In this document: positions 35,106 to 36,412 of the stretch, piece after piece
Layout of the letters: each line of letters begins with the position of its first letter
Numbering within the stretch: position 1 is the stretch's first letter
Source of the DNA: Sorex araneus
Taxonomy: Eukaryota; Chordata; Mammalia; Eulipotyphla; Soricidae
DNA length: 64,000 nt
Direction of reading: 5' to 3'
Assembly (NCBI RefSeq): GCF_027595985.1
Contig: NC_073302.1
Coordinates: 16,679,311 to 16,743,310, forward strand
Made by a program: the position numbers and the translations under genes
Notes under the pieces: generated by a model
The model's input: only the letters and a program-made list of their open reading frames with translations
Told to the model about the DNA's origin: nothing
Database searches by the model: none

Positions 35106-36196
35106 ATGTTTAAGGTTTTTTTCCATAAAGAACACATGACTTTATTTTCATAAAAATAATAGTGATACAATGAGGGGAGAAAACAGAGTCATGTCTTAGC
35201 CTTTACTTAGGGAAATTTTTTTCACTAAACACTGGTAAAGGAGCATAATTCTTCAGAGTGGTAGAGGATACAAAGAGAAGCATACAAGATTGAAAGCATA
35301 AAAGCATATTCTCATAAGAACCAAGCAATCCTCGTTGTTAGCGGACCAAATGGAATCATCATTAATGTAAGTAGAATCGAAATTCACAATCTGTAAGTCC
35401 TTCTTAAGATACACATGATTCAGCTTATTTACAGTTCGAGCAAAGGCATATTTAGAAGCACAGCTATATGCTTCCATACGGTACACTTTTTTGAAGTGCA
35501 GATCAAAAAATGGATTGTCGGTATCTGCTTCTTTTCCATCAATTTTCTGCAGATCTTTCAAAGACCATCTTTTGGTTACTTCATATTTTTCATCTAAACC
35601 TGTCCTGTAGTGTTTCACCATAATTATTTTTACTTCTTCTTTTTTGGTCACTGACACACAGAGGTAGTACCTGTCCTGGACCGAGAACTCTATTTCAATG
35701 AACTCGTACAGATTCTCCGACAGAGGCTTAAACAGTTTCTTCTCCAAGTCCTTCTTCACCAATGATGACATTGCCTCCAGTTCCACTGGGCTTGCTCTCT
35801 CGACTCAAGCCCCCTCGTGCAGTTTGCTCTCTAAATTTTTGGCTTGGGCTTTGCAGCTCCGGGATGAGTCCTGCCCACCTCCCAGCCCTCACCTGCTTAA
35901 CTTCTCAGTCGTAGCCAGAGCCAGGCCGCCAAGAGCGCTCAGCTGCGGCCAGACCCCTCACTGATGTGGCAGAGGCGGGCGCAGCCGGAGCGCAGCAGCA
36001 GGACCAGCCTCACCGTCACTTTTCAGCATCCAGGCTCCAGCAGGCTGTTCGCTGAAGTCCTCCCGAGGCTCTCTGCTGGGGAACCGGTTTCTGAACACCA
36101 GCAAATCAACTTGTGGAGTCCCCTGGTTATTCTCCTCTAGTAGCCTTGCCCTTCCACTCCACTCTGCAGATGGAGACCACGACTTCTGCTTGATTC
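35106..36196 (-). mobile_element. processed retrocopy of EXOC1L mRNA
   Basis: The proposed unit runs from about 36196 (5') to 35106 (3') on the minus strand. It has a 5' UTR-like region of about 425 bases with GC-rich parts, an uninterrupted reading frame, a 3' UTR, an AATAAA signal (complement of TTTATT near 35142) and a short A run (GGAAAAAAACC) about 17 bases later. A 14-bp candidate TSD with one mismatch flanks it: CATTATATAGATCA (35092-35105) and CATTATATAAATCA (36197-36210). Absence of introns plus a tail points to L1-mediated retroposition. The TSD is suggestive only. Confidence 0.65.
35253..35771 (-). CDS. EXOC1L: EXOC1L-like protein, intact intronless frame
   Basis: Encodes 172 residues starting MSSLVKKDLEKKLFKPLSEN and ending in a hydrophobic tail (CFSLYPLPL). 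The sequence resembles EXOC1-like, a small paralogue of the N-terminal domain of exocyst subunit Sec3/EXOC1. In Sec3 that PH-like fold binds PI(4,5)P2 and Rho-type GTPases at the plasma membrane. Family words include YYLCVSVTKKEE, WSLKDLQKIDGKEAD and NPFFDLHFKKVY; the last parallels NPEFDLHFEKIY in EXOC1. I recall human EXOC1L as also 172 residues. The start is the second of two in-frame ATGs; using the first (35786) adds five residues. There is no stop or frameshift. EXOC1L normally neighbours EXOC1, not TLR4, so this is probably a retrocopy. Whether it is expressed cannot be told from sequence. Confidence 0.82.
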   Translation of the reverse strand: MSSLVKKDLEKKLFKPLSENLYEFIEIEFSVQDRYYLCVSVTKKEEVKIIMVKHYRTGLDEKYEVTKRWSLKDLQKIDGKEADTDNPFFDLHFKKVYRMEAYSCASKYAFARTVNKLNHVYLKKDLQIVNFDSTYINDDSIWSANNEDCLVLMRICFYAFNLVCFSLYPLPL

Positions 36197-36412
36197 CATT
36201 ATATAAATCAGCTGTCTGGCGCTATTGATTGAAATCATCTTCCATTAAGAACTTCACTATCATCCGCAAGAGAAAAAGCATCAGTGCAAACACTCTTGAC
36301 ACTTCCAACAAGTCTTCTTGCCCCTCCTGCAACTCTCTCAGATCTTTGCTTCCTGACAAGCAGCACTGAATCTTGGGTTCAATTTCTTTTTCTTTTTTTC
36401 CTAAAAGGGATG

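What the first reader, a model, noticed from the sequence alone, without database searches (positions are those of the whole stretch)
35106..36210. Intact EXOC1L-like reading frame without introns next to TLR4
Seen: 172 uninterrupted codons, AATAAA plus a short A run downstream, and a 14-bp flanking repeat with one mismatch. Known: EXOC1L is a paralogue of the EXOC1/Sec3 N-terminal domain and in other mammals sits beside EXOC1. Inferred: a processed retrocopy. Retrocopies usually decay, so an open frame means either recent origin or selection. It lies about 4.7 kb upstream of TLR4 in the same direction.
Basis: partly seen in the sequence, partly recalled or inferred. Interest (0 to 1): 0.75.

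Follow-up and report, generated by a model that had tools for sequence, protein, structure and literature searches.

The report
Young intronless copy of shrew EXOC1L
This is a fairly young copy of the gene EXOC1L that was pasted from messenger RNA into the shrew genome near TLR4, behind the tail of a LINE-1 element, and its reading frame is most simply open because it has not had time to decay.

Summary
A 172-codon intronless EXOC1L frame lies on the minus strand (35771-35253), upstream of TLR4 and in the same direction. "Processed retrocopy" is now shown: the same genome (Sorex araneus by its TLR4) holds the three-exon parent beside EXOC1, and the window copy is that mRNA with both introns removed exactly, 1298 aligned bases, no gaps, 30 differences.

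Two corrections. Homology runs on to 36419, where it meets the 3' end of a 5'-truncated LINE-1 in the same orientation; the repeat that fits a duplication brackets LINE-1 plus EXOC1L together. And nothing points to selection: 6 amino-acid and 3 silent differences fit neutrality, and the six appear to lie on the copy's branch. Simulated neutral frames stay open in 65-71% of runs.

An ordinary retrocopy with one curiosity: EXOC1L either landed in the A-tail of a resident LINE-1 or was inserted with it as one template-switch chimera. This genome alone cannot decide.

The parts
35253..35771 (-). open reading frame of the EXOC1L retrocopy, 172 codons plus stop
35122..36414 (-). processed EXOC1L mRNA copy (643 bp of 5'UTR from 36414, 516 bp coding plus stop, 131 bp 3'UTR with AATAAA); homology to the parent also covers the A5 at 36419-36415
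   Evidence: 1298 columns (36419-35122) aligned to the spliced parent without gaps, 30 differences
35116..35122 (-). short poly(A) remnant, A7, the first A shared with the parent
36415..36419 (-). A5 junction between the LINE-1 tail (T8 A5) and EXOC1L; the parent has A10 here, close downstream of its own, older LINE-1 3' end
36415..36990 (-). 5'-truncated LINE-1 3' end (end of ORF2 and 3'UTR) of a young family, same orientation as EXOC1L
   Evidence: 38 of the 44 listed matches are LINE-1 copies at 95-97% to this piece (40 of 8106 candidates were scored)
36991..37006 (-). 5' copy of the probable target-site duplication, AAAACGTAAACATTGA
   Evidence: 10 bp exact and 14 of 16 to the 3' copy, ending exactly at the LINE-1 5' edge
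35103..35118 (-). 3' copy of the probable target-site duplication, AAACCTTAAACATTGA (its first A's overlap the poly(A))
18755..30578 (-). TLR4 (coding exons about 30578-30480, 23963-23787 and 21031-18755), the downstream neighbour, unrelated to the retrocopy

Best explanation
A processed EXOC1L mRNA was reverse-transcribed by LINE-1 machinery and inserted upstream of TLR4, in the same direction, in the lineage of Sorex araneus. Shown: exact loss of both introns, colinearity to the end of the parent's last exon, a poly(A) remnant, one parent gene beside EXOC1 and one copy in this genome, and a LINE-1 3' end directly upstream with a probable duplication around the pair. Inferred: LINE-1 machinery did it; the frame is open because the copy is young (2.3% from its parent); it evolves neutrally and most likely makes no functional protein. 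Inferred, and only slightly favoured: the LINE-1 fragment was there first and the EXOC1L cDNA was primed in its T8/A(n) tail, so EXOC1L's own duplication consisted of A's only and is invisible.
For: Parent: one whole-genome protein search found 4 matches (13 of 13 candidates scored), the window copy plus three exons within C5:183339946-183359041; a DNA search with 1279 bp found 5 matches, all at the same two loci (4 of 4 candidates scored). The three parent exons match at 751/769, 133/133 and 387/398, all ungapped; both introns have GT..AG ends at the exact joins. A Sec3-domain exon lies 22.7 kb downstream of the parent's last coding match on the same strand (read as EXOC1 from the translation and recall). 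Age and constraint: 30/1298 differences; 5'UTR 15/648, coding 9/519, 3'UTR 6/131; 6 nonsynonymous and 3 synonymous, not different from neutral expectation (Fisher p 0.39), and coding not significantly slower than UTR (p 0.35). At 5 of the 6 amino-acid sites the parent has the commonest residue of all homologues, and at the sixth (147) the mammal residue, e.g. site 144 S in 75 of 76 ungapped, site 168 C in 75 of 77. Simulated neutral frames stay open in 71% of runs after 8 substitutions and 65% after 10 (substitutions only). LINE-1: 8 of 20 related copies end in T6-7 then A4-7, like the T8 A5 at the join; the fragment differs from the column majority of 21 copies at 8/558 sites (the 20 others 3-11 of 555-559), a similar youth.
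Against: EXOC1L lacks a visible duplication of its own; the only good one brackets LINE-1 and EXOC1L together, which a single-event chimera explains more simply. Absence of selection rests on 9 coding differences, so weak or recent selection is not excluded. dN/dS is 0.50 by raw counts, below 1 though not significantly. The A-only duplication is assumed, not seen. No expression data.
Confidence: 0.9

Rival explanations
1. LINE-1 and EXOC1L arrived together as one chimeric insertion. Reverse transcriptase started on the poly(A) of an EXOC1L transcript, copied it to the A10 run at the edge of the parent's old LINE-1, jumped to the poly(A) of an active LINE-1 RNA and copied about 570 bases of its 3' end before stopping.
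For: One repeat abuts the LINE-1 5' edge and the EXOC1L poly(A) (10 bp exact, end-anchored: 24 of 20000 random pairs reach that; at least 14 of 16: 8 of 50000 random pairs and 2 of 50000 shuffled flanks; the 16-base frame was chosen after seeing the match). No EXOC1L-only duplication was seen. The junction lies in an A-run present in both templates. The LINE-1 part belongs to a young family (95-97%) and is only 81% like the LINE-1 at the parent, so it was not simply carried over. LINE-1 chimeras with mRNA pieces and single duplications are described (PMC13174262, abstract and sections 10, 12, 13 and 20 read; PMC2104539, abstract read).
Against: In the 17 mRNA/LINE-1 chimeras described in PMC13174262 section 13 the RNA piece is fused to the 5' end of the LINE-1; here the LINE-1 is the 5' partner. 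LINE-1 A-tails are natural endonuclease targets (general knowledge), and of 20 related LINE-1 copies 1 (L021) has another LINE-1 piece starting 11 bases, and 2 more (L026, L034) 38-47 bases, after the aligned tail in the same orientation. A nested insertion with an A-only duplication leaves the same trace.
Confidence: 0.4
2. A functional retrogene kept by selection: a second EXOC1L protein, driven by promoter sequence carried in its long 5' leader.
For: The frame is intact, the 5' leader is long and GC-rich in part (200-base stretches up to GC 0.65, CpG observed/expected up to 0.58), the PH-like domain is recognisable, raw dN/dS 0.50.
Against: All 6 amino-acid changes appear to be on the copy's branch, mostly at sites where homologues agree. 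Substitution rates are not significantly lower in coding than in UTR sequence, and 6:3 fits neutrality. In the leader 4 of 21 parental CpGs are absent from the copy and 1 is found only in the copy, no sign of a protected promoter. All of this is weak, for want of differences.
Confidence: 0.05
3. It is the native EXOC1L gene, or a DNA-level duplicate.
For: The frame is intact and has the usual length.
Against: The introned parent sits beside EXOC1 in the same genome and the copy lacks both introns exactly.
Confidence: 0.01

Closest known systems
LINE-1-mediated processed retrocopies (processed pseudogenes) of mammals
   Same: Exact intron loss, poly(A) remnant, 5' and 3' UTR carried along, probable duplication with an A-rich start, parent on another contig (C5).
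   Different: The probable duplication encloses a LINE-1 3' end as well; the frame is still open.
LINE-1 chimeric insertions (U6/LINE-1, Alu/LINE-1, mRNA/LINE-1; PMC13174262, PMC2104539)
   Same: Two transcripts directly joined in sense orientation within one probable duplication, LINE-1 part 5'-truncated.
   Different: Order reversed relative to the mRNA/LINE-1 chimeras of PMC13174262 section 13: LINE-1 is 5' and the mRNA copy 3'. Contemporaneous arrival could not be tested.
EXOC1L, paralogue of the Sec3/EXOC1 N-terminal PIP2-binding domain
   Same: 172 codons, 166 of 172 residues identical to the parent, PF15277.
   Different: No introns; six substitutions (E7K, Q19E, S144A, K147E, L165F, C168Y).

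Membership tests
processed retrocopy | introned parent elsewhere in the same genome | tested here: met
processed retrocopy | exact loss of GT-AG introns | tested here: met
   two of two introns
processed retrocopy | poly(A) after a polyadenylation signal | tested here: met
   AATAAA, then A7 right at the end of parent homology
processed retrocopy | target-site duplication at the ends of the insert | tested here: inconclusive
functional retrogene | purifying selection on the frame | tested here: not met
   6 to 3, p 0.39; changes mostly at conserved sites; low power
functional retrogene | expression of the copy | not testable with these tools
   no shrew RNA reads at hand
LINE-1 chimeric insertion | one duplication around both joined parts | tested here: met
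   a nested insertion into the tail gives the same picture
LINE-1 chimeric insertion | both parts present or absent together in relatives | not testable with these tools
   states that this genome has no relatives here
LINE-1 chimeric insertion | similar age of both parts | tested here: inconclusive
   8/558 from the LINE-1 majority; 30/1298 between copy and parent, shared by two branches; compatible with one event, does not exclude two

The most novel reading that the evidence does not exclude
The EXOC1L retrocopy and the LINE-1 3' end upstream of it are one chimeric insertion of unusual order (LINE-1 tail 5', mRNA 3'). The template jump was guided by an A-run in the parent's leader that is itself the fossil tail of an older LINE-1, so an old LINE-1 upstream of a gene would have provided the landing pad that fuses its mRNA to a new LINE-1.
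Probability: 0.38. Interest if true: 0.35.

Novelty: new member of a known kind. Interest (0 to 1): 0.2.

Why it matters
It is a clean example of why an open frame in a retrocopy is weak evidence of function: at 2.3% divergence simulated neutral frames of this length are still open in about two thirds of runs. For annotation, an EXOC1L-like gene next to TLR4 in this shrew should be treated as a retrocopy. The LINE-1 tail to mRNA junction is a small test case for telling nested insertions from template-switch chimeras.

Tried and rejected
Simple carry-over (3' transduction) of the parent's upstream LINE-1: rejected as the source of the LINE-1 part, because that LINE-1 is only 81% like the one in the copy and, as far as BLAST aligns it, starts within ORF2 at about C5:183337328, so shows no LINE-1 promoter, while LINE-1s elsewhere match the copy's piece at 95-97%. 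A duplication for the parent's old LINE-1: no match of 8 bp or more between the two 60- and 85-base flanks compared. Other EXOC1L copies: none found in the one genome searched. The extra Sec3-domain hit on C3 reads as STXBP6/amisyn from its translation (name recalled), not an EXOC1L copy. None of the 84 homologues has the copy's residue at sites 144, 147 or 168, but they stand for clusters at 90% identity, so this says little about annotation of the copy elsewhere. PDB sequence search gave only weak yeast Sec3 matches (best E 0.17). Literature: EXOC1L gave 11 papers in the held library. I saw passages of two: in PMC11747099 the match is an Exoc1-LacZ allele name, not EXOC1L; PMC10453322 concerns human variants. 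Search on chimeric retrogenes: 5 papers. Search on retrocopies, retrogenes, LINE-1 and shrew: 3 papers, listing only. Search on retrocopies and nested insertions: 23 papers, 10 listed. Of PMC4476161 I saw the listing only.

Full report
What is there. The frame is on the minus strand, 35253-35786 from a GTG and 35253-35771 from the homologous ATG, 172 codons. It carries the Sec3 N-terminal PIP2-binding domain PF15277 (E 4.6e-21) and is 91% identical to the sheep and hare EXOC1L clusters. TLR4 lies downstream on the same strand, with coding exons at about 30578-30480, 23963-23787 and 21031-18755. Its third-exon product is 100% identical to a Sorex araneus record on a contig of 452.70 Mb, and this genome's first contig has 452.70 Mb, so the window is taken to be common shrew.

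The parent. A whole-genome protein search found four matches: the window copy and three places at C5:183339946-183340068, 183355042-183355215 and 183358772-183359041. A Sec3-domain exon at C5:183381734, same strand, reads as EXOC1 (name recalled). The window sequence matches the three parent exons at 751/769, 133/133 and 387/398 bases, ungapped; both introns have GT-AG ends exactly at the joins. Over the spliced mRNA there are 30 differences in 1298 bases and no gap. Homology stops some 20 bases after AATAAA, and there the copy goes on with A7 while the parent does not. A DNA search with 1279 bp found only these two loci. So this is one processed retrocopy of one parent gene.

The boundaries. 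The copy extends to 36419, where it meets a LINE-1 3' end in the same orientation (36990 to about 36415). Of the 44 matches listed for 34900-37300, 38 are LINE-1 copies matching this piece at 95-97%; only 40 of 8106 candidates were scored, so the family is far larger. Among 20 fetched, 8 end in T6-7 then A4-7, like the copy's T8 A5. The word TAAACATTGA ends exactly at the LINE-1 5' edge and recurs right after the EXOC1L poly(A). Taken as AAAACGTAAACATTGA against AAACCTTAAACATTGA it is 14 of 16. Random window pairs reach an end-anchored exact 10-mer in 24 of 20000 draws and 14 of 16 in 8 of 50000; shuffled flanks in 2 of 50000. The 16-base frame was chosen after seeing the match, so these figures flatter it.

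LINE-1 and EXOC1L. The parent also has a LINE-1 3' end close upstream of the homologous stretch, but one only 81% like the copy's and 5'-truncated as aligned, followed by A10 GTTGTCCCTTT twice in tandem. The junction pattern A5 GTYRTCCCTTTTAGG occurs only at these two places in the genome. Two histories fit. In the nested one, EXOC1L cDNA was primed in the A-tail of a resident LINE-1. In the chimera, reverse transcriptase jumped from the A10 run in the EXOC1L transcript to the poly(A) of a LINE-1 RNA. Both predict the same orientation, a junction in an A-run and one outer duplication. For the nested history: LINE-1 tails are natural targets (general knowledge), and of 20 related LINE-1s one (L021) has another LINE-1 piece beginning 11 bases beyond its aligned tail and two more (L026, L034) 38-47 bases beyond, same orientation. 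For the chimera: no EXOC1L-only duplication is visible, and chimeras with single duplications are described. I read the abstract and sections 10, 12, 13 and 20 of PMC13174262 and the abstract of PMC2104539. In the 17 mRNA/LINE-1 chimeras of PMC13174262 section 13 the mRNA piece is fused to the 5' end of the LINE-1, the reverse of the order here, and splicing is the mechanism favoured there. PMC2912911 (passages) reports short duplications with 5'-truncated LINE-1 insertions and mentions healing by microhomology, which fits either history. I put the nested one slightly ahead; the weighting is judgement.

Selection. Differences are 15/648 in the 5'UTR, 9/519 in the coding part and 6/131 in the 3'UTR; 6 are nonsynonymous and 3 synonymous, dN/dS about 0.50 by raw counts. 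Against site numbers this fits neutrality (p 0.39), and coding versus UTR rates do not differ significantly (p 0.35). At the six amino-acid sites I aligned all 84 homologues. The copy's residue appears at site 7 in 1 of 62 ungapped, 19 in 1 of 58, 144 in 0 of 76, 147 in 0 of 76, 165 in 2 of 79, and 168 in 0 of 77. The parent's residue is the commonest at five of six; at site 147 G (35) and R (26) outnumber K (13), but all 10 ungapped of the 12 mammal clusters that I chose have K. Among those 12, one has the copy's K at site 7 and one the copy's F at 165; several of them are partial or alternative isoforms. So the six changes look like changes of the copy (two-sided binomial p 0.03 against an even split). 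The silent changes were not polarised. Simulated neutral change leaves the frame open in 71% of runs after 8 and 65% after 10 substitutions (indels ignored, so somewhat optimistic). The open frame therefore needs no selection. In the leader 4 of 21 parental CpGs are absent from the copy and 1 is only in the copy, a weak hint against a protected promoter.

Limits. No relatives of this genome are held, no RNA is available, and age in years is not given because no shrew rate was measured here. The neutral verdict rests on nine coding differences.

Verdict. It is an ordinary young retrocopy with an interesting but undecided LINE-1 junction.

Noticed in passing
56604-61455 (+): A long LINE-1 with an open first frame (329 aa) and a second frame split in two overlapping pieces (948 and 329 aa), i.e. 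an apparent frameshift; its 3' end is 93% like the fragment upstream of EXOC1L over 565 bp.
   Followed up: no
L005:8273-8315 (about C5:183339272-183339314, parent EXOC1L leader): Tandem repeat of A10 GTTGTCCCTTT right after an old 5'-truncated LINE-1; origin unexplained (slippage, or an A-only insertion with an 11-bp duplication).
   Followed up: partly
L021 (C11:41224350-41225250); also L026 and L034: LINE-1 3' tails followed after 11 (L021) or 38-47 bases (L026, L034) by another LINE-1 piece in the same orientation: the same kind of tail junction as in the window.
   Followed up: no
parent EXOC1L (C5) versus sheep P0001: Nine amino-acid differences between shrew and sheep EXOC1L (positions 44, 45, 57, 68, 72, 76, 98, 99, 120), none in the first 43 or last 52 residues.
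   Followed up: no
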